Virus record (IMG/VR): IMGVR_UViG_3300025133_000022
Location: 62,001 to 126,000 of that record
Length of the DNA: 64,000 bases
DNA from: a virus
Direction: 5' to 3' (one strand)
Of this stretch, positions 2,752-58,253 are shown piece by piece. The notes under the pieces were generated by a model. That model had not been told where the DNA came from. It worked only from the letters and a program-made list of their open reading frames with translations, and did no database searches. A program made the translations under genes and the position numbers. Numbering within the stretch: position 1 is the first letter of the stretch; every line of letters begins with the position of its first letter.

Positions 2752-3123
2752 ATGAAAGTTGGAGATATAGTTTGCCCCAACGGACTATACAATAGTTCTG
2801 CTGCAGTACTCATCAGTAACATTCGCAGTGCCAAAGTAATGAAAGTGTTTCGTAACGGTAGCAACGGGTCAGATGGTATGGAAATCAAAATCCTAGAAGG
2901 AAATGGTTCCGCCAACCCCCACACTACTTCCATTACATTAGAAATGGGCTGGGGCCCTGGTAGAAGATTCAGAAATCCCCAGACTTTTAGTGCTGGAGGC
3001 ACAGTCAGGGTGTTTCAACGTCCATTTCGAATTATGTCAAAAGCAAACCCTGGCGCAATGGGATTACCCGATTGCGACTTACCCGCCATGGATGATATTA
3101 TGCTCATCATGGCACTCACCTAG
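2752..3123 (+). CDS. Protein of unknown function
   Basis: 123 residues, start ATG 2752 behind an AGGAATC-type site. It is Gly-rich in the middle with predicted beta strands. It ends in TAG (3121-3123), so amber acts as an ordinary stop here: reading through would add only a few residues before TGA. Confidence 0.7.
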   Translation: MKVGDIVCPNGLYNSSAAVLISNIRSAKVMKVFRNGSNGSDGMEIKILEGNGSANPHTTSITLEMGWGPGRRFRNPQTFSAGGTVRVFQRPFRIMSKANPGAMGLPDCDLPAMDDIMLIMALT

Positions 3124-3133
3124 GAAAAACAAC

Positions 3134-3427
3134 ATGTCTACCTCTATCCTTGAGCTCTGGTCCAAAACTCCACAAGAAAAAGCTAGCGCCGCTCTCACTC
3201 TCTCCTACAAGCGTCTCAAAGCCAATGCTGACGCCTATATGGTAGAAGCAGCACAAGAAAAACTAAACGCAGAAGCAGCACTATCAGCGGCACTACAAGG
3301 CAGCAAGACCACACCAGACTTTGCCTCAATTGTCAAAGCCAAACTGCGTTCAGCAGCAGCCGATCTCACATACTCCAAAGGTGCTGAAACTTACACCAAG
3401 TGTTTCAACACAGCACCTTCAGTATAG
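3134..3427 (+). CDS. Helical protein of unknown function
   Basis: 97 residues, Ala- and Lys-rich and probably all helical. ATG 3134 follows the previous stop by 10 bases. Ends in TAG. No recognised domain. Confidence 0.7.
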   Translation: MSTSILELWSKTPQEKASAALTLSYKRLKANADAYMVEAAQEKLNAEAALSAALQGSKTTPDFASIVKAKLRSAAADLTYSKGAETYTKCFNTAPSV

Positions 3428-4375: not shown

Positions 4376-4410
4376 TGCTAAAAGAGCTTGGTAACAATAG
4401 GAGTGACCAA

Positions 4411-4815
4411 ATGGAAACGGAATACACGTAGAGCCAAATCAGTTCATTCTTTGAGCGGTTAGAACAAGTAAGCAACGCACTTAACATCTGTGGAGACTAT
4501 GACTTCGAATTCACAGAATGGGAAAGCCAGTCTGGATTCATCACAGTCAGCTGGGAAGAACCAGCTTGTGGTAGCGGTTGTTGTGGCTATGACAGTCATG
4601 AAGGCCAAATACCAGTAGCACTGCTATTTGATCCCAACTGGGAAGCAACAATAGCTGCTGATAAGAAAGCAAAACTAGCTAAAGCAAAAGCTGACAAGCT
4701 TGCTAAAGAGCAAGCTGACAAGCTACAACAGCAACGAAAGGCCGAACAAGCCAAAGCCAACAGGCGTTTGACTTACCAACAATTAGCCAAAGAGTTCGGA
4801 GACACCAGTGTCTGA
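4411..4815 (+). CDS. Amber-interrupted gene (TAG at codon 7), coiled-coil C-terminus
   Basis: ATG 4411 has a strong AGGAGTG ribosome-binding site at 4399-4405. Codon 7 (4429-4431) is TAG, and the same frame then stays open for 127 more codons to TGA at 4813-4815. The downstream product is protein-like: a folded part with ESQSGFITVSWEEPACGSG, then a charged Ala/Lys/Gln-rich coiled coil. There is no ATG, GTG or TTG close after the amber codon to restart translation. The stop overlaps the GTG start of the next gene, a normal gene-to-gene junction. A tRNA with anticodon CTA lies 373 bases downstream. I infer amber readthrough; a recent nonsense mutation is the alternative. Confidence 0.72.
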
Positions 4816-5155
4816 ACACTCTTACGATCCTAACTGGAAGCTACGTATCGTAGTAGATCAAACACTAAAGCCAGGCCAACAGATAGCACAAGCTCTTCAT
4901 GCAGCCATTGAGTTCTTGTTTGTATATCCTGAACAATCAAACACATGGCACTGTCTAAGCAACAGCGTAGTCGTCATGAACTGTGAGCCAGAAGAGCTAC
5001 CCAAGCTCTTAGATCGTTGTAAAAAGAAAAATGTGCAATACTCTACCTTCATGGAGCCTGACATGGATAACCGACTTACAGCAGTCTGCATAGAGCCAAC
5101 ACGAACAGGAAAGAAGTGCACCAGCAATTACAAGCTGGCCATGCGAGACATCTAA
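4808..5155 (+). CDS. Peptidyl-tRNA hydrolase 2-like protein
   Basis: 115 residues starting at GTG 4808, which overlaps the stop of the preceding gene. The pattern LRIVVDQTLKPGQQIAQALHAAIEF matches the N-terminal strand and helix of the PTH2 family (archaeal and eukaryotic type), and TAVCIEPTR fits a later strand. PTH2 enzymes release tRNA from dropped-off peptidyl-tRNA. Its place next to a suppressor tRNA and a tRNA array fits tRNA recycling. Confidence 0.75.
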   Translation: MSEHSYDPNWKLRIVVDQTLKPGQQIAQALHAAIEFLFVYPEQSNTWHCLSNSVVVMNCEPEELPKLLDRCKKKNVQYSTFMEPDMDNRLTAVCIEPTRTGKKCTSNYKLAMRDI

Positions 5156-5162
5156 AGGCTCA

Positions 5163-5181
5163 GCGAGGGCTTGGACCTCGC
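5163..5181 (+). terminator. Hairpin between PTH2-like gene and CTA tRNA
   Basis: GCGAGG and CCTCGC pair around a short loop, followed by GTTTAT. Possible terminator or tRNA-processing hairpin. Confidence 0.45.
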
Positions 5182-5187
5182 GTTTAT

Positions 5188-5259
5188 GAGGAATTAGCTC
5201 AGCGGTAGAGCAGCAAATTCTAAACTTGTTTGTCGGGGGTTCGAATCCCCCATTCCTCA
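5188..5259 (+). tRNA. Suppressor-type tRNA, anticodon CTA
   Basis: Acceptor GAGGAAT pairs perfectly with ATTCCTC, D arm GCTC-AGCGGTA-GAGC, anticodon arm GCAAA-TTCTAAA-CTTGT (one A-C mismatch at 31-39), T arm GGGGG-TTCGAAT-CCCCC. The loop has T33 and A37, A38, and positions 34-36 are CTA, which reads UAG. An 11-base loop with a different stem is possible but less canonical. Its amino acid cannot be assigned. The amber-interrupted gene at 4411 is a nearby candidate target. Confidence 0.82.
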
Positions 5260-6654: not shown

Positions 6655-6730
6655 GTCCTTGTAGCTCAGTGTTTAGAGCGCCCGAACCTGAAAAGCAGGG
6701 AGGTCGTCGGTTAGAATCCAACCAAGGACA
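6655..6730 (+). tRNA. Degenerate tRNA, possibly tRNA-Phe(GAA)
   Basis: Acceptor GTCCTTG/CAAGGAC and D arm GCTC/GAGC are perfect. The anticodon region contains CTGAAAA, the usual Phe loop, but the stem around it is broken (CCC/GGG with an inner bulge, 20 bases instead of 17). The T stem has one mismatch and the T loop is TTAGAAT. It may be a decaying or unusual tRNA. Confidence 0.55.
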
Positions 6731-14797: not shown

Positions 14798-15040
14798 ATG
14801 ACTCCTAAAGAAAGACAACAACTGCAAAACGCAAACCTACGTGAAAGAACAGCTACGGCAACAGCAAAAAGAGCAGGAAGAAAGAATCTAATTTTAAAAA
14901 CAAAGATTCAAAAGCTCGAAGAACAAATAGAACAACTACAGCAACAGTTAGAAGAAGCAAAGAAACCCAAACCAAAAAGCAGAACCAGAAGAAGCAAAAC
15001 CAAAACGATACCCGAGCTGACTAGTGCTGATTCCAAATAG
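14798..15040 (+). CDS. Coiled-coil basic protein
   Basis: 80 residues; a heptad-rich helix (KIQKLEEQIEQLQQQLEEAK) follows a basic N-terminus. Ends in TAG, overlapping the next gene. Similar in design to the 30561-30824 product. Confidence 0.7.
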   Translation: MTPKERQQLQNANLRERTATATAKRAGRKNLILKTKIQKLEEQIEQLQQQLEEAKKPKPKSRTRRSKTKTIPELTSADSK

Positions 15041-32573: not shown

Positions 32574-32754
32574 GCACCTACAAGATATGCAATCTTTCCG
32601 AGCCTTGTTCATTCGGAACTTGGCTCGTGAACTTGCTTCATTTATACCAACCCAAACTGTCCAAGAAATAGTTGTGCAAGCATATGCTGAACTTCTGGAC
32701 AAACGACTACCGTCAGCTACCGAGGCATCTTATCCGAAGCCTGCAGAACAATAG
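32551..32754 (+). CDS. Small helical protein of unknown function
   Basis: 67 residues from ATG 32551 behind GGAGG, overlapping the recA stop. Helical. Ends in TAG. Confidence 0.62.
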   Translation: MTPQQKLEHLQDMQSFRALFIRNLARELASFIPTQTVQEIVVQAYAELLDKRLPSATEASYPKPAEQ

Positions 32755-37051: not shown

Positions 37052-37274
37052 CTGGAACAACGACTCAACCAAAGACGAACTGCAAGCCGAACTTGTCCGA
37101 CTAGAAAGACTGCACGAACGAAACAGATCCAAGTACCTAGAACTGCAAGCCAAAGTTAAGAAATTACAAGCAGAAAACAAAGAACTCAAAACCAAACTAG
37201 GCAAAGAGCAAGACGCCAATCTCGATAAAAGCACCCTGCATTTTTCGGATCTGTTTGGAGGTTTTAAATTTTGA
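37044..37274 (+). CDS. Coiled-coil protein preceding dnaE
   Basis: 76 residues, almost wholly charged coiled coil. Its TGA overlaps the TTG start of the polymerase N-terminal gene, so translation is probably coupled. Confidence 0.68.
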   Translation: MSNWNNDSTKDELQAELVRLERLHERNRSKYLELQAKVKKLQAENKELKTKLGKEQDANLDKSTLHFSDLFGGFKF

Positions 37275-38599
37275 GCAACTTCGTACACTTGCACATGCAC
37301 ACCGAATACAGCACACTCGATGGCATCAACAGGATTGAAACTCTGCCCGACCACATCATAAGCTTGGGTCAGAAAGCCGTGGCTATCACAGACCACGGCA
37401 ACATCAGCGGCAGCTACAAATTTGCCAAGAGCTGTAGAGCCAAGGGCATCAAGCCTATCATTGGCCTAGAAGCCTATTACACTCCACATGACGCAGCAGT
37501 GCGCGAACTAGACGATCTGGGAAAGAGGTACTATCACATGGTGCTCCTGGCCAAGAACGGAGTAGGCTTGAAGAACCTCCGATGGCTAAGCACCAAGGCG
37601 TTTACTCAGGGCTTCTACGCGAAGCCACGATTGGACGATCGCATCATTGCTGATCACTCAGAAGGCATCATTGCTACAAGCGCATGCCTGGGAAGTAGGA
37701 TCAGTCAGCTGATTCTAAACGACCGTAAGGTCGAAGCAGAAAAAATGCTACTGCACCACAATGCGATATTTAAAGACAGCTTCTTCATCGAAGTACAGTT
37801 ACACCCCATGGGTGAGCAACAGCTAGTCAACCAAGTGTTGTTAGACATTGCGAAGAGGCACAGTCTGCCGCTCATCCTTACAAACGACTGCCACTACACT
37901 CACGAGCAAGACAAACTGCTGCACGAAAAGGCACTATGCATGAGTACTAATGCCAAAATGAGTGATCCACCATGGGACCCTGAACGCAAAGCCAAGGGTC
38001 TTACTGGAAAGACCCGATTTAGTTTCGGGCCCATCGATGTACATGTAGCACACCATGACTGGATGTGGAAACATGCACAAGCTCAAGGAATTCCCTATGA
38101 AGCAATTAGTAACACTGCTGCAGTGGCAGACAGTATCCGTGATGATCAATACTTCATGGATATTCGTAACAGATATCCCCGCTATCAGCATGTTGACACT
38201 GGGGAAACTAGCTGGAACGCTTTAGAGTACTTAGCAAAAGAACTTCTTTGGAAAAAAATGAACGGTCAAGTACCAGAAGTCTATCGAAATCGCATGGATC
38301 ATGAACTTGGAATCATTAAAAAAATGGGGTTCTCTGACTATTTGCTTATTGTTCATCAATTTTTAGAAGGGGCTCGGAAAGAAGATGTCTTTATTGGTCC
38401 AGGTCGAGGTAGTGCTGCCGGAAGTCTAGTCAGCTACGCACTGGGTATCACCCAAGTGGATCCAATCAAATACGGACTTGTATTTGAACGTTGGCTTAAC
38501 TACGGTCGTGCTGCTCAGCCAATTTTATTTGACCAACACATGGTGCAGCAAATCAAGAGCATGACACCTGTAAAAGCGCCATGCTCTCATAGTCATTAA
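37271..38599 (+). CDS. dnaE: DNA polymerase III alpha, N-terminal gene (PHP domain and start of the polymerase core)
   Basis: 442 residues from TTG 37271 behind TTTGGAGG. The PHP domain begins FVHLHMHTEYSTLDG with metal-binding His residues and ITDHGNISG, LTNDCHYT further on. The last part, IGPGRGSAAGSLVSYALGITQVDPIKYGLVFERWLNYGR, is the start of the DnaE polymerase core. It then ends in a His-rich tail (KAPCSHSH) before the catalytic Asp motif, which is in the separate C-terminal gene 1.7 kb downstream. The two products must assemble for activity. Confidence 0.9.
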   Translation: MSNFVHLHMHTEYSTLDGINRIETLPDHIISLGQKAVAITDHGNISGSYKFAKSCRAKGIKPIIGLEAYYTPHDAAVRELDDLGKRYYHMVLLAKNGVGLKNLRWLSTKAFTQGFYAKPRLDDRIIADHSEGIIATSACLGSRISQLILNDRKVEAEKMLLHHNAIFKDSFFIEVQLHPMGEQQLVNQVLLDIAKRHSLPLILTNDCHYTHEQDKLLHEKALCMSTNAKMSDPPWDPERKAKGLTGKTRFSFGPIDVHVAHHDWMWKHAQAQGIPYEAISNTAAVADSIRDDQYFMDIRNRYPRYQHVDTGETSWNALEYLAKELLWKKMNGQVPEVYRNRMDHELGIIKKMGFSDYLLIVHQFLEGARKEDVFIGPGRGSAAGSLVSYALGITQVDPIKYGLVFERWLNYGRAAQPILFDQHMVQQIKSMTPVKAPCSHSH

Positions 38600-39318
38600 G
38601 TAGGTATGGCAACCCAGCCATCTCGTACAGTGAAAGTGACACTCTTTACATAGCCTGAATTGTCATGAAACATAACTCTTGCATCATTGGGAGCAGTTAT
38701 GCTTCCGATGCTTAAGCTCATTGTCTCCTGGCTTAATATATTCTCATCGGAATCAAGAAGGCATGCCATCACGGAAACTTCTGCTGCAGAATCTACATAC
38801 CAGTAGACTAGCAATGCAGAAGGCTCCGTGCTTTGTTCGTCATCCCCACCGGAGCCAACATTACCGACACCACTGGTAATCGAGGCTTCCCAGTCACCTC
38901 CACTGTGTTTGAAAGCCCAAGCGTTAACCCAGGTCGTGCTAAACTTTAAACCTATCCCAATGGCGGCATTAGACCATGTCCCAGTAATATCACTTAAATT
39001 CAATCTAGTGATGTACATAAACTGATCAGCATCCCAAGTGCCGTCAACACCTGGGTCAAGCTGCACGGCTAAACTTTGACTTGAAAGAACTGAGTGTGCT
39101 GTAGCGTTTGTGGTCAGGGTATTCGAAGTACCGAGACTGCTACTATCAAGTGCCCCTTGGGTATCGGTGATAGTGTTGCCAACAAGATCTCTGTTTGAAA
39201 GAGTGGCCGCTGGGCTTCCACCCCCGCCAGAAGCAGTAGTATCATTAAGAGCCTCTCCTGAGAGAGGCCCTCCACCAGTTACTGTAACTTGTACCTTACT
39301 ATTGGTTGGACCCGACAT
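38596..39318 (-). CDS. Virion-like beta-rich protein, inverted island
   Basis: 240 residues on the minus strand, third in the reverse operon. Gly/Ser/Thr-rich N-terminus, then strand-rich sequence (WDADQFMYITRLNLSDITGTW, TWVNAWAFKHSGGDW) resembling lectin- or fibre-like folds of virion proteins. Its last bases overlap the end of the polymerase N-terminal gene on the other strand. Confidence 0.7.
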   Translation of the reverse strand: MSGPTNSKVQVTVTGGGPLSGEALNDTTASGGGGSPAATLSNRDLVGNTITDTQGALDSSSLGTSNTLTTNATAHSVLSSQSLAVQLDPGVDGTWDADQFMYITRLNLSDITGTWSNAAIGIGLKFSTTWVNAWAFKHSGGDWEASITSGVGNVGSGGDDEQSTEPSALLVYWYVDSAAEVSVMACLLDSDENILSQETMSLSIGSITAPNDARVMFHDNSGYVKSVTFTVRDGWVAIPT

Positions 39319-39321
39319 GCA

Positions 39322-39729
39322 TCACCAACAAACGATAGTGATCGTACTGCCAGAACTCAGACTTAAGGCATCAATTTGCAAACTAGCAACATTTAAACCT
39401 TCTGCAGTCTCAAGAACAGTACTCCCAGTGCTTTGATAACTAGGAAAGCCACCAGCCCAAATCTCAATAATAGGGTTGTTGTAGATCCCATACATTTGAT
39501 CAGTCTTGCTAAAAGCTTCATCAGCTCGACGCTTCTTATGAATGCGTTGGAGATTGTTCAGCGTGTAGTCAATTGTGTCGGCAGCATCTGTCATGATGAA
39601 TTGTAGACGCCTTGCTGGGCGTCCAAGAACATTGGTGAAATCAATTTGATCACCAGCAGCAACTGCAGTAATCTCAGCACTTCGCTGAGAGCTTGGAATA
39701 GATTTGGAAACAGGCGTATAAGTTGCCAT
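39322..39729 (-). CDS. Virion-like protein, inverted island
   Basis: 135 residues on the minus strand. Beta-rich with ITAVAAGDQIDFTNVLGRPARRLQF and a C-terminal strand GSTITIVCW. It looks like a small structural protein such as a head or tail decoration protein; not identified. The next start follows within a few bases. Confidence 0.68.
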   Translation of the reverse strand: MATYTPVSKSIPSSQRSAEITAVAAGDQIDFTNVLGRPARRLQFIMTDAADTIDYTLNNLQRIHKKRRADEAFSKTDQMYGIYNNPIIEIWAGGFPSYQSTGSTVLETAEGLNVASLQIDALSLSSGSTITIVCW

Positions 39730-39740
39730 CGTAAAACTCC

Positions 39741-40235
39741 TTAAGGATTGTTAATGATTAGTGGTGCGGAATCATAATGCACATCAACAAAACCAACTGG
39801 AGTCCCAGTCATTTTCGCTGTTGCTTGCAAAAAGAAATAATCGCCAGCTTCAGTAAGCCGCGCATCTTCACTTGTAAATGAAAAATTGGCAAAACCGCCA
39901 TCGCCAGCACCACCTGCAAGAGTACAGGTAGCAATACGAACAAATGCAGCATTGCGAAAGCGATATATTTCAAGATCATACTGCCCACCACTGCCATCGC
40001 TCATTAAATGAAAGTGAATGCTAGACATACGAAGAGCACTATCGACTCCAACACGGCCATAATTCGCAGCAGCAGCCCAGCTAAAAGTATTTGGTTGCCC
40101 AAGGACCGAATCTTTATCAACAGGATCGTTAAACCATTCAACCCCAGGCTGATAGGCAAGGGCAGTCATACTAAAACGAAGCTCACCAATAGTGTTTCCG
40201 TCAATAGTAATTCCTGTCATATAGTCAACAGGCAT
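39741..40235 (-). CDS. Virion-like protein, first gene of inverted island
   Basis: 164 residues on the minus strand. ITIDGNTIGELRFSMTALAYQPG and later FANFSFTSEDARL, DYFFLQATAKMTGTPVGFV suggest a beta-sandwich. It begins 60 bases from the start of the divergent polymerase C-terminal gene, so the gap must hold divergent promoters. Confidence 0.68.
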   Translation of the reverse strand: MPVDYMTGITIDGNTIGELRFSMTALAYQPGVEWFNDPVDKDSVLGQPNTFSWAAAANYGRVGVDSALRMSSIHFHLMSDGSGGQYDLEIYRFRNAAFVRIATCTLAGGAGDGGFANFSFTSEDARLTEAGDYFFLQATAKMTGTPVGFVDVHYDSAPLIINNP

Positions 40236-40295
40236 CGAAACTCCAAATTATATTTAATATTACCCACATCACCAACCGGGAGACCGAGCAAATCT

Positions 40296-43200
40296 ATGAA
40301 AAAACTAATTAACAAAATCAAAACCCACTATAACCAAAACCGATTGGCACTTGTCGATCAAGATTTTCTATCCTTTGAAGAAGATCTTAGCACAAATCAA
40401 GATCTAGAGCTAGTAGAACTAGCCCTAACACATAATCTCAAATTTGTAGAAAACCCAACCAATAGCATCATCTTGTACCTAACTGGTCTTACTGACCAGT
40501 TCGACAATGAGAAAGCTAGAGCTGACACGAGAGGTGGCTCTCCCCCTGACATTGACATCGACTTTGAAGCCCTTGGTAGAGACAAGGCGGTCGATTGGGT
40601 GGTTGAAGAGTGGGGGCGAAATCATGTTGCAAACATTATGACCCAAGGCACCTTTAAGCCCAAGAGTCTTACAAGAAGATTTTTCAAGATCACTGAGGGA
40701 GACCAAGAAGTCATGAGAGAAATCCTTCGAATGATCCCGCCCCCACACTTTGGCAAAGAACCAAAGTTAAAAGAAATCATTGAAGGTAACAAAGACAAGG
40801 GCTATGTAGCCCATCCAGAACTAGCTACTGCTCACAAGTACAAGGAATGGTATGAATTCACCAAGAAACTGGAAGGAATGGTTGCTAACTTTGGCATCCA
40901 CGCAGCTGGAATCGTTATCAGCGACTTCCCCATCCCAGACACCATTCCCTGCTGGAAAAACAGCAAGAGCGAATTCATTACCCAATACGACATGCACGAA
41001 GTTGAAGAACTAGGAAGCATCAAGTTTGACTTCCTGGTAATCAACAATCTAGACATCCTGAAAGAATGCGTACGACTTATTAAACTAAGACACAACATCG
41101 AATACGATATTTATAATGTGCCTGACGGAGATGAAAAGGCTTACGAACTCATGGCTCAAGGACTGCTAACCGGCGTCTTTCAAATGGAGACCAGTGGATC
41201 AGCCAAAAAACTGATCCAACGCATCAAGCCTACCAACTTAGAAGAACTTAGCGACATTAACGCATTGAATCGACCTGGACCAATGGAAGCAGGTCTAGAC
41301 GAAGCCTATGTAGTAAACAAGACCAATGGCTACGCTCCCAAGGACATGCCTCCTGCTCTTGCAGAAATTCTAAAAGGAACCTATTGGACTCTGGTGTATC
41401 AAGAGCAAATCATGCGACTGGTATCCGAACTGGCAGGATTCACGCTTCAAGAGGCAGATGACGTTAGACGAGCAATGGGTTGACAACACTTTAGCATAGC
41501 GCTATGGTACTTCATACAAGGAGTACTTATGCAAACCAAAATCACAGATGAAAAGAAGCTAGAAATTGCTCTAGCTTACCAGCAGGGTCAAAGTACAATA
41601 GAGATTGCAAACAACTACGGCTGCTCGACTACCATAGTTTACAGAGCTCTGAAACTGCTTGAGACTCCTAGGAGAACTGGTGGCCATCAGCCACCAAACT
41701 TCAAAGATACTTACTTTGACCAGATCAACACAGAGGAAAAAGCCTACTTCCTAGGCTTAATCATCGCAGACGGAAGCGTATGTCAGCCCTCCAGGGGCGG
41801 TCAAAAAATTTTCCAGTTGGAACTCCTTGAGCAAGACAACAAGCTCATTGCCCAACTCTGCCAAGAACTCCAATACCCTCTGTCCAGGATTAAAACTTAC
41901 CAGCGAACAGGCAGATCAGCTACAAGCAAAGTCTCAATTACCTCAAACCAACTAGCTAAAAGCCTAGCAAAATACGGAGTGGTTGCAGACAAAGCCCCTT
42001 GGACTGAACTACCCACAATAGACGCAAGCCTGATGAGACATGCTCTTAGAGGACTGTACGATGGCGATGGAAGTATTGCCAAGTACAGACTCGTACTGAC
42101 AGCAGGCAACACAGTGATTCTAAACCAAGTGCGTGACCATCTGATCAGCACCTTAAGCCTGAATCCAAAAGCCATTAGAATCTACAAAACAGGAGAAAGA
42201 GCCTGGGCTCTTTCTATCAACAGAAAGCTGGAAAGACAATCTGTGATGAAGCACCTCTACCAAGATGCTTCTGTCGCTATGCAAAGAAAAGCCCGCTGGC
42301 TGGGCAACCAGTCAGAATAACCATTCCGTGAATTCAGAGAAAGCCCAGAGGTGGGTAACCCTGAGCCAAGCTGTAGAGGAATCTACAGAAGGTGCAACGA
42401 CTAGTGAATACAATCCAGAACGGATTATGAATCACCACGAGCGCGGAACATCCCAAGCGGATGAAGATATAGTCTGAGCTACGCCAATAGCCTAAAAAGA
42501 AAGCGTAGAAGCTCAGGATAAAGAGCCTGAGCGATAACAACACTGAAAAAGAAAGTCTCCGTGCTGGAGAAGTACAGAGACCCCTTCATTAAAGGCTGTG
42601 TAGACCACAATATCAATAAGCAATATGCAGAAACTCTTTGGGACGACACTCTACTTGGTTTTGCTAACTATTGCTTTAACAAGTCCCACAGTCTGGCATA
42701 CAGCGTCATCACCTACCTTTGCGCTTTTTTCAAAGCACACTACCCTACTGAGTTCTTCACCTCGTTGATGACTATCCGATCTCAGGTGATGCAACCAAAA
42801 CTATGGGCGCAGAAAGCGCCCCAGTTCGTTAGCGAGGCCAAGAAGATGGGAGTACGTGTTCACGCACCCTACATCCAGAAGTCCAAACTTGGCTTCACCA
42901 TTGAAGACGATGAAATCTACTTTGGTCTCAATGCCATTAAGCAAGTAGGAGTAACAGCTTGCCGAAGCATTATTGCTGCAAGAAAGCGGGGAAACTTTAA
43001 AGACATCTGGGACTTTTTAGCTCGAGTCAACAGACAGAAAGTTACCACCAGAACCTTTGAGGCCCTGGTAAGAGCGGGTGCGTTCGACCGCATGGGTTAC
43101 CTACGGTCAGAACTACTCGAAAAGACTAAAGACATCTATTCATTCTTCAACAACAACATTGAATATGAAGAAAGAATCCAAAATCATAAAATTAGAGCAG

Positions 43201-43907
43201 CTGAAAATCAAAAAAAAGATGCACGCCGTACAGAAATTCAAAAAGAAATCAAGAATGCTAAAACACTTATCAAGCAAATGAAAAAAGAAAAGCTGAATGT
43301 GCCTGCATTTCTACAACATGCTGCCGACTATGACAAAAGATTAAGAAACGTAAGACAACAGATTCGTGCAACCGGGTTAAAGCCAGAAGAAACATTGTCA
43401 GGAAAAGACCTACAAGAGTATAACGAATCTTTGACTCTTCGAAAAAAACCAGAACTCAAGTTGAAAGACAAACCAATTCAGCCAGAGCTTACTAGAGTTA
43501 GAGCTGTAAAGATAAGCGTCGCAGAATTAATGGAACAAGCAGATTTCATTGGATGCTATCTTCATGACCATCCAGCTCCCGTCTTGTATCCAGATACTAC
43601 CCGCATTGCCAACGCACAACAAGGTGACTACCTAGGCATGGCAGGGCAAATTACCAACTGGAAGCAAATCAAAACCAGAAAGGGAGATGACATGGCTTTC
43701 GCCCAGATGGGCGACGGTACTGGTCTCGCAGAACTAATAATCTTTCCATATGTGTACAAAAGACTCAAAGCCAGTGGTAAACTACCAGAGCCAAGAGATA
43801 TTGTTCGGGTTAGATGTGAAGTAGAAACAGCTGGAAACGAAGATAGCGAAGAAAATGGTGAAATTAAAGTCATCGTTAAAGATATCGAAGTCTACCAGTC
43901 CAAATAG
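40296..43907 (+). CDS. dnaE: DNA polymerase III alpha, C-terminal gene, two exons
   Basis: Exons 40296-41480 and 42546-43907 encode about 848 residues. The catalytic pair is in SPPDIDIDF, and the third Asp in IKFDFLVINNLDIL. Exon 1 ends in the conserved QEADDVRRAMG and exon 2 resumes KKKVSVLEKYRDPF...GFANYCFNKSHSLAYSVITY, the normal DnaE order. A coiled segment, helix-hairpin-helix and an OB domain (GDYLGMAGQITNWKQIKTRKGD) follow. The N-terminal 80 residues before the catalytic motif have no counterpart I recognise. Together with the N-terminal gene the total is about 1290 residues. Confidence 0.9.
41481..42545 (+). mobile_element. Group I intron in the polymerase C-terminal gene
   Basis: 1065 bases. 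The exon ends GGT and the intron ends G. The core is clear in the 3' half: CCCTGAGCCAAGC (Q), GCAACGACTAGTG (R, P7 5' strand) and GAAGATATAGTCTGAG (S). The endonuclease gene starts 48 bases into the intron, so it sits in a peripheral loop near the 5' end. Splicing restores the DnaE motif RRAMG-KKK. Confidence 0.92.
41529..42320 (+). CDS. LAGLIDADG homing endonuclease, intron-encoded
   Basis: 263 residues with both motifs, AYFLGLIIADGSV (about residue 77) and ALRGLYDGDGSI (about 176), so a single-chain two-motif enzyme. An N-terminal helix-turn-helix (TIEIANNYGCSTTIVYRALKLL) probably helps DNA binding. ATG 41529 follows AAGGAG. It should cut intron-less polymerase alleles. Confidence 0.92.
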   Translation: MQTKITDEKKLEIALAYQQGQSTIEIANNYGCSTTIVYRALKLLETPRRTGGHQPPNFKDTYFDQINTEEKAYFLGLIIADGSVCQPSRGGQKIFQLELLEQDNKLIAQLCQELQYPLSRIKTYQRTGRSATSKVSITSNQLAKSLAKYGVVADKAPWTELPTIDASLMRHALRGLYDGDGSIAKYRLVLTAGNTVILNQVRDHLISTLSLNPKAIRIYKTGERAWALSINRKLERQSVMKHLYQDASVAMQRKARWLGNQSE

Positions 43908-57180: not shown

Positions 57181-57738
57181 ATGAAAACCATTGTAATTAA
57201 TCTATTTGGAGGTCCGGGTGCTGGCAAAAGCACCCTAGCCTCCGAGTTGTACGTGCTGATGAAACGCCAGGGCCTATCAGTTGAGCTCGTACGAGAGTAC
57301 GCAAAAGACTGGGCATACCAAGACAAGCACATCGACACCCTGATGAAACAAACATACATCCTTGCCAAGCAAGCTCAACGAGAGTCCAGCCTGTATTGGA
57401 AAGTGAAGTACATCATCACCGACTGCCCTATGGCTCTGAGTGGATTCTATGCTCAAAAGTATCTTGGTACACCAGCCATGAGCGTACTGATGCTGGAATT
57501 CCTACGAGAAGCTGAACGCGCAGATATTAAGCACGTGTACTTCCAAGTACCAAGAAAGAAAGAATACAACCCAAATGGCAGGTACGAAAACGAGGCTGAT
57601 GCTATCGCTATTGACCAAGAACAAGCCACATACTTCGGGAACTTCTTCAACCCCATAAAACTGGAGGGACCAGACAACGAGTTGGCCCTCCAGATCTATC
57701 ACACACTAAGGATTCAAGAACAATGCACGCAATGCTAG
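57181..57738 (+). CDS. AAA/NadR-like P-loop ATPase or kinase
   Basis: 185 residues. Walker A LFGGPGAGKSTLASELY, then VREYAKDWAYQDKHID and IITDCPMALS (Walker B-like), and RYENEADAIAIDQ. This is the pattern of the NadR-type or thymidylate-kinase-like ATPases often found in phages. The substrate is unknown, with NAD or nucleotide metabolism possible. Confidence 0.78.
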   Translation: MKTIVINLFGGPGAGKSTLASELYVLMKRQGLSVELVREYAKDWAYQDKHIDTLMKQTYILAKQAQRESSLYWKVKYIITDCPMALSGFYAQKYLGTPAMSVLMLEFLREAERADIKHVYFQVPRKKEYNPNGRYENEADAIAIDQEQATYFGNFFNPIKLEGPDNELALQIYHTLRIQEQCTQC

Positions 57739-58253
57739 ATATTGAGACACTGGGTACTGGTCCAGACGCCCCTGTGCTTAGCGCAGCAGTTGTCTTCTTT
57801 GACCCAGAAACAGAAAAGACATTCGAACAGGCAAAATTCATATTCAATGTAACTTTGCAAACTACTCGAGTCATTGATTTCACCACCGTCACATGGTGGA
57901 TTAACCAAAGCCCAGAAGCCAGAGCTCACTGGATGAATGTAAAAGAATACAATACCCTCGAACAATTCGTGCAGTTTTGCGAAACCCATAGCAAAGTAAC
58001 TTGGTGGGCTAACAGTCCAGCATTCGATGAAGTTATCATGAGCTCGTTGCTCCGTGACGCTGATGAACGAGTTCCTTGGAAATTCTGGACCTGGCGTGAC
58101 GTCAGAACCATTAGGAACTTCCTATTCAACCAAACAAAACCAAACAACAATAACGTGCACGACCCTCTAGCAGATTGTCTTGCTCAGATCGAACTTGTGA
58201 ATAGGTTTTATGCTCAGCAAGCCATGGTAGCCATACTCCAGGAGCAAAAATGA
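57723..58253 (+). CDS. DEDD-type 3'-5' exonuclease
   Basis: 176 residues. MLDIETLGTGPDAPVLS holds the first Asp and Glu, WWANSPAFDEVIMS the second Asp, and NVHDPLADCLAQI the His and last Asp. This resembles the phage exonuclease VIII-like (RNase T/DEDDh) family. It may proofread or process nucleic acids. The start may be ATG 57723 or the internal ATG 57732. Confidence 0.85.
   Translation: MHAMLDIETLGTGPDAPVLSAAVVFFDPETEKTFEQAKFIFNVTLQTTRVIDFTTVTWWINQSPEARAHWMNVKEYNTLEQFVQFCETHSKVTWWANSPAFDEVIMSSLLRDADERVPWKFWTWRDVRTIRNFLFNQTKPNNNNVHDPLADCLAQIELVNRFYAQQAMVAILQEQK

What the first reader, a model, noticed from the sequence alone, without database searches (positions are those of the whole stretch)
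4411..5259. Amber codon right after a strong start, with a CTA-anticodon tRNA 0.4 kb downstream
The frame 4411-4815 has a strong AGGAGTG site, ATG, TAG at codon 7, then 127 open codons with protein-like content and a normal overlap with the next start (GTG inside the stop region). A tRNA reading UAG lies at 5188-5259. TAG is also the normal stop of many genes in the window (for example 3121-3123, 3425-3427, 15038-15040, 32752-32754), so this is not full recoding. The gene looks like a readthrough switch: its product depends on the phage suppressor tRNA.
Basis: partly seen in the sequence, partly recalled or inferred. Interest (0 to 1): 0.85.

Follow-up and report, generated by a model that had tools for sequence, protein, structure and literature searches.

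The report
Phage gene gated by amber codon
A bacterial virus that otherwise uses the normal genetic code has one small gene with a stop codon near its start, and 0.8 kb away it carries the one tRNA that can read that stop, so the gene is probably translated only through the virus's own tRNA; this has not been tested in the laboratory.

Summary
Frame 4411-4815 has a Shine-Dalgarno site, ATG, TAG at codon 7, then 127 open codons without a usable start. A well-formed tRNA with anticodon CTA lies at 5188-5259. The frame is a real gene: distant phage homologues share its N-terminus (METEYT*SQI / MNAEYTEEQI), its core (ACGxGCCGYDxH) and its C-terminus, with sense codons where this phage has TAG. An all-frame scan of the 192.5-kb record found no other stop-interrupted gene, and ARAGORN found only one CTA tRNA. 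Amber is not recoded genome-wide. However, late genes almost never end in TAG (1/53), against 26/162 early genes (p=0.004). A syntenic relative ends 10 of 30 orthologous late genes in TAG where this phage has none. This is what an active amber suppressor would select for. The best reading is that the phage's own suppressor tRNA reads a recently acquired amber codon in an early gene. Whether this is a regulatory switch or tolerated, incipient recoding is open. A recent nonsense mutation or an assembly error is not excluded, because no second sequence of this locus was available. Phages with suppressor tRNAs and standard code are known, so this is a new variant of a known kind.

The parts
4399..4405 (+). 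Shine-Dalgarno site AGGAGTG, 7 nt from AGGAG to the ATG
   Evidence: sequence
4411..4815 (+). Amber-interrupted gene (134 aa if TAG is read): N-terminal helix, beta domain with ACGSGCCGYD motif, long Lys/Ala/Gln-rich helix ending YQQLAKEFG
   Evidence: homologues; weak model (pLDDT 69) places the first helix at 7-23; full-length but low-scoring Foldseek matches to uncharacterised phage proteins
4429..4431 (+). TAG at codon 7; Glu (GAG) in L070; near Gln in L089
4808..5155 (+). Peptidyl-tRNA hydrolase 2-like gene; GTG start overlaps the TGA of the amber gene; SD GGAG at 4798-4801
   Evidence: Pfam PF01981 E 2.7e-5 (24.8 bits, cut-off 23); sequence
5188..5259 (+). tRNA with CTA anticodon (anticodon at 5220-5222), A73, no encoded CCA: putative amber suppressor
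   Evidence: ARAGORN; Rfam 67.1 bits; drawing

Best explanation
A functional early phage gene has an amber codon in place of a sense codon at position 7. The phage's own amber suppressor tRNA, encoded 0.76 kb downstream on the same strand, reads this codon in competition with the host's release factor 1. Full-length protein is therefore made only once, and only as far as, the suppressor tRNA is present; otherwise translation stops after METEYT. The rest of the genome keeps the standard code. Early genes can end in TAG because they are translated before the tRNA accumulates, or because short extensions do no harm. Late genes have lost TAG stops because the suppressor would extend their products. 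Shown here: the gene, its start, the TAG, the tRNA, and the late avoidance of TAG. Inferred: charging and activity of the tRNA, the inserted residue (Lys is my first guess from U35, A73 and the nearest annotated relatives, with Arg and Val tRNAs almost as similar), timing, and dependence of the protein on it. Whether the arrangement was selected as a switch is not shown.
For: Homologues prove the frame and the start: METEYT*SQI aligns with MNAEYTEEQI, and ACGxGCCGYDxH and the C-terminal end are shared. It is the only stop-interrupted coding frame in 192.5 kb and lies next to the only CTA tRNA. The tRNA is well formed. Late genes end in TAG 1/53 against 26/162 early (Fisher p=0.004), although out-of-frame TAG makes up 27% of stop triplets in late genes. 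Reciprocal-best late orthologues of relative G004 use TAG in 10 of 30, this phage in 0. Pooled relatives G004, G006 and G010 show no late/early contrast (p=0.28; difference of log odds ratios p=0.012). TAG use in the family's late genes does not follow GC content (rho 0.06). The homologues with sense codons lie on contigs without a CTA-tRNA pattern.
Against: One sequence only: a near-identical contig (99.9%, G011) does not cover the locus, so a sequencing error, strain variant or fresh nonsense mutation cannot be excluded. The TAG is not seen in any relative. Several family members have few late TAG stops with unknown tRNA content. TAG-ended early genes show no excess of back-up stops. The tRNA's anticodon stem has an A-C mismatch. 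No release factor or class II (PF00152) synthetase gene was found, though host enzymes would suffice.
Confidence: 0.6

Rival explanations
1. The TAG is a recent nonsense mutation, or an assembly or sequencing error, in an ordinary dispensable gene; the CTA tRNA is a coincidence.
For: One base change from GAG, CAG or AAG would do it; homologues have sense codons; only one metagenomic sequence covers the locus; the neighbouring tRNA region is variable and absent or uncovered in relatives.
Against: No other stop-interrupted gene in the genome; the frame and all conserved motifs are intact; the stop is the one of three that the phage's only suppressor-type tRNA can read, 757 nt away; late genes avoid TAG.
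Confidence: 0.25
2. The suppressor tRNA serves another purpose, such as disturbing host translation or host defence proteins by reading through host TAG stops, and the amber codon in this gene is merely tolerated as a by-product (incipient recoding). This overlaps with the best explanation: the codon is still read by the tRNA, but was not selected as a switch.
For: CTA suppressor tRNAs occur in phages without recoding (clade 8 of zeta crAss-like phages; PMC12386605); suppressor before recoding, and a genome that begins to gather TAG codons, are described in crAss-like phages (PMC7886860); late genes avoid TAG, which only requires an active suppressor.
Against: Only one TAG in the whole genome, close to the tRNA, at a very early codon.
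Confidence: 0.3
3. METEYT* is a short leader reading frame (minigene) that controls the overlapping downstream genes, in particular the Pth2-like gene, by termination or peptidyl-tRNA drop-off; the part after the TAG is not translated.
For: A 6-residue frame with a strong start lies just upstream of a peptidyl-tRNA hydrolase-like gene; lambda bar minigenes are a precedent (own knowledge).
Against: The 127 codons after the TAG are conserved protein with the family's N-terminus split by the TAG; the Pth2-like gene has its own SD.
Confidence: 0.05

Closest known systems
Phages with genetic code 15 (TAG read as Gln; Lak phages, many crAss-like phages, phAss-1)
   Same: Phage-borne CTA tRNA reads TAG inside a phage gene during infection of a presumably standard-code host; late genes treated differently from early ones.
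   Different: There many genes, mostly late, carry in-frame TAG. Here one early gene does, late genes have none and also avoid TAG as stop, and TAG is a normal stop in early genes; no RF1/RF2-family gene found.
Standard-code phages with an unused suppressor tRNA (zeta crAss-like clade 8; alpha-group OKSC01000115 'suppressor pre-emergence'; beta-group OFRY01000050 early TAG accumulation)
   Same: Suppressor tRNA in a genome without general reassignment; OFRY01000050 is described as beginning to accumulate TAG codons (PMC7886860, PMC12386605).
   Different: Here the TAG is in a small accessory-type early gene next to the tRNA and at codon 7, and an early/late contrast in TAG stops is measurable.
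In-frame stop codons with readthrough in bacterial genes (PMC7918605)
   Same: A single in-frame stop in an otherwise intact, conserved frame.
   Different: A cognate suppressor tRNA is encoded nearby; conservation of the stop among relatives could not be shown.

Membership tests
Genetic code 15 (TAG-recoded) phage | Many in-frame TAG codons in conserved, mostly late genes | tested here: not met
   Whole-record scans: one gene only
Genetic code 15 (TAG-recoded) phage | CTA suppressor tRNA | tested here: met
Genetic code 15 (TAG-recoded) phage | TAG no longer used as a stop | tested here: not met
   TAG ends 26/162 early genes, but only 1/53 late genes
Genetic code 15 (TAG-recoded) phage | Code-switch helpers (RF2, synthetase) on the phage | tested here: not met
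   No PF00472 or PF00152 in the record; other synthetase families not searched; helpers are not always present in such phages
Suppressor-dependent readthrough of a single gene | Conserved protein on both sides of the stop, no restart after it | tested here: met
Suppressor-dependent readthrough of a single gene | Stop codon conserved among relatives that have the suppressor tRNA | tested here: inconclusive
   No relative covering the locus; distant homologues have sense codons and no CTA-tRNA pattern
Suppressor-dependent readthrough of a single gene | Full-length protein made and dependent on the tRNA | not testable with these tools
   needs protein and genetic data
Pyrrolysine tRNA | Atypical shape (6-bp anticodon stem, 3-nt variable loop, 1 nt between acceptor and D stem; own knowledge) | tested here: not met
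   Ordinary cloverleaf: 5-position anticodon stem, 5-nt variable loop, 2 nt before the D stem
Pseudogene / nonsense mutation | Further inactivating changes, or other broken genes nearby | tested here: not met
   Frame and motifs otherwise intact; no other interrupted gene; a fresh single mutation remains possible

The most novel reading that the evidence does not exclude
A dedicated translational time switch in a standard-code phage: one early gene, and perhaps the overlapping Pth2-like gene, is held off by an amber codon until the phage's suppressor tRNA from the same region accumulates, while late genes have been cleared of TAG stops so that they tolerate the suppressor.
Probability: 0.22. 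Interest if true: 0.8.

Novelty: new variant of a known kind. Interest (0 to 1): 0.55.

Why it matters
How phages move from the standard code to stop-codon recoding, and why many carry suppressor tRNAs with no obvious target, is open. This genome has the tRNA, one readable amber codon and a measurable clearing of TAG stops from late genes without in-frame recoding. It would be an intermediate in which a suppressor is active late and gates a single gene. The late-stop test used here can be applied to any phage with an apparently idle suppressor tRNA.

Tried and rejected
Direct searches with the 134-aa product in viral contigs and phage records gave nothing. Homologues came only from a degenerate DNA pattern for its CGxGCCGY motif; most pattern matches were chance. 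Profile search of bacterial genomes: none. Other in-frame TAG candidates were examined and rejected: a Ro60 gene with a normal later start, a ribonucleotide reductase N-terminus followed by an in-frame endonuclease-like ORF, and reverse-strand frames over real genes. Search for CTA tRNAs in relatives: matches were Arg(TCT) tRNAs, a Glu-tRNA D loop or chance. No excess of back-up stops after TAG-ended genes. The weak phrog_14742 match (E 0.06) covers only the C-terminal helix and was not used alone. A first ORF script was faulty and its output was not used.

Full report
What was checked. The window is bases 62001-126000 of a 192,537-base virus record. Its first and last 535 bases are nearly identical (530 matches) and a 75-kb contig that is 99.9% identical runs across the join, so the record is probably close to complete. 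At 4411 a gene starts behind AGGAGTG; codon 7 is TAG; 127 sense codons and TGA follow; the next gene starts at a GTG that overlaps this TGA. No ATG, GTG or TTG occurs in frame for about 112 codons after the TAG. A tRNA with a CTA anticodon lies at 5188-5259.

The gene is real. Codon statistics favour this frame, but the homologues are decisive. A pattern for the motif CGxGCCGY found L070:3925-4422 (also L053) and L089:4281-4712(-), from contigs of 54.6 kb (125.7 kb for the L053 copy) and 288 kb. The first begins MNAEYTEEQI where this gene reads METEYT*SQI. All three share ACGxGCCGYDxH and related C-terminal ends. A second gene in L070 looks like a paralogue and begins with a similar GYTKAQV (by eye). 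Vibrio phage D69 has a weak relative (E 0.06). The TAG therefore replaces a sense codon just after the start of a recurring kind of small phage protein, and the ATG at 4411 is the true start. A weak structural model (mean pLDDT 69) begins its first helix at residue 7. Foldseek finds full-length but low-scoring matches to uncharacterised phage proteins, among them one of Rhizobium phage RHph_Y68. The function is unknown.

It is unusual within its genome. In a scan of all six frames of the record for coding frames broken by any stop codon, with no restart nearby and not overlapped by another gene, this was the only case. ARAGORN finds 24 tRNAs and one CTA anticodon.

The genetic code of the phage. 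TAG is not reassigned: no late gene was found with an in-frame TAG, and TAG ends 26 of 162 early plus-strand genes. It ends only 1 of 53 late minus-strand genes (Fisher p=0.004); the late region holds the major head protein genes. Out of frame, TAG makes up 27% of stop triplets in the late genes, so composition is not the reason. In the syntenic relative G004 12 of 40 late genes end in TAG, and 10 of 30 reciprocal-best late orthologues do so where this phage has none. In relatives G004, G006 and G010 late and early genes do not differ (pooled p=0.28); the difference between this phage and them has p=0.012. Across 68 loci around the head protein gene (37 with at least nine scored genes) TAG use varies widely and is unrelated to GC content (rho 0.06). 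The nearest relative also shows none (G012, 0 of 32), but its tRNA region is not in the contig. Some other loci are also poor in late TAG. The gene calls come from a simple codon-usage script of mine, not from a standard gene finder. The pattern is what an amber suppressor active in late infection would leave behind; it is supportive, not proof.

The tRNA. It is an ordinary cloverleaf with a G-U pair and an A-C mismatch in the anticodon stem, A73 and no encoded CCA. It is not a pyrrolysine tRNA by shape. The nearest annotated phage tRNAs are Lys, Arg and Val. U35 and A73 make Lys my first guess; the homologues show that several polar residues are tolerated near this site. No release-factor (PF00472) or class II synthetase (PF00152) family gene was found on the phage; other synthetase families were not searched.

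Relatives. None of the 36 related records searched encodes the gene, and none of those searched for it shows a CTA tRNA. All are fragments or distant, so this says little about close relatives. The distant homologues with sense codons have no CTA-tRNA pattern on their contigs. The TAG and the tRNA are therefore seen together only here.

Interpretation. The most likely account is that the phage's own suppressor tRNA reads this amber codon, so that the protein is made conditionally (0.6). Two versions cannot be separated: a selected time switch, or a tolerated amber codon in a phage whose suppressor has another use (incipient recoding). Both have partial precedents: crAss-like phages with suppressor tRNAs but standard code, and one that is starting to gather TAG codons (PMC7886860, PMC12386605). 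A fresh nonsense mutation or an assembly error remains possible (0.25), because only one sequence of the locus exists in the collections searched. The neighbouring Pth2-like gene invites speculation about peptidyl-tRNA recycling, but nothing tests it.

Noticed in passing
window 7071-7239 (+), with L006:15441-17021 (+): Y RNA-like element (Rfam YrlA, 40.9 bits, E 1e-7, below the gathering score of 69) in the same phage genome as a Ro60-like protein (vWA_Ro60 E 2e-18, TROVE E 5e-5): a possible phage-borne Ro60-Y RNA pair.
   Followed up: partly
window 37271-43907: DNA polymerase gene in pieces (37271-38599, 40008-41483, 42561-43907) with a group I intron at 42257-42493 and three reverse-strand ORFs between the first two pieces.
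   Followed up: no
L006:17645-18916 (record 57645-58916): What looks by eye like a ribonucleotide reductase N-terminus ends at PPGRGL and runs in frame through a TAG into an endonuclease-like ORF; probably an intron with its homing gene.
   Followed up: partly
window 4808-5155: Peptidyl-tRNA hydrolase 2-like gene between the amber gene and the suppressor tRNA; a weak relative in a 373-kb virus contig (L001).
   Followed up: partly
window 6655-6730 and 7937-8021: Rfam reports tRNAs that ARAGORN misses (45.5 and 51.1 bits).
   Followed up: no
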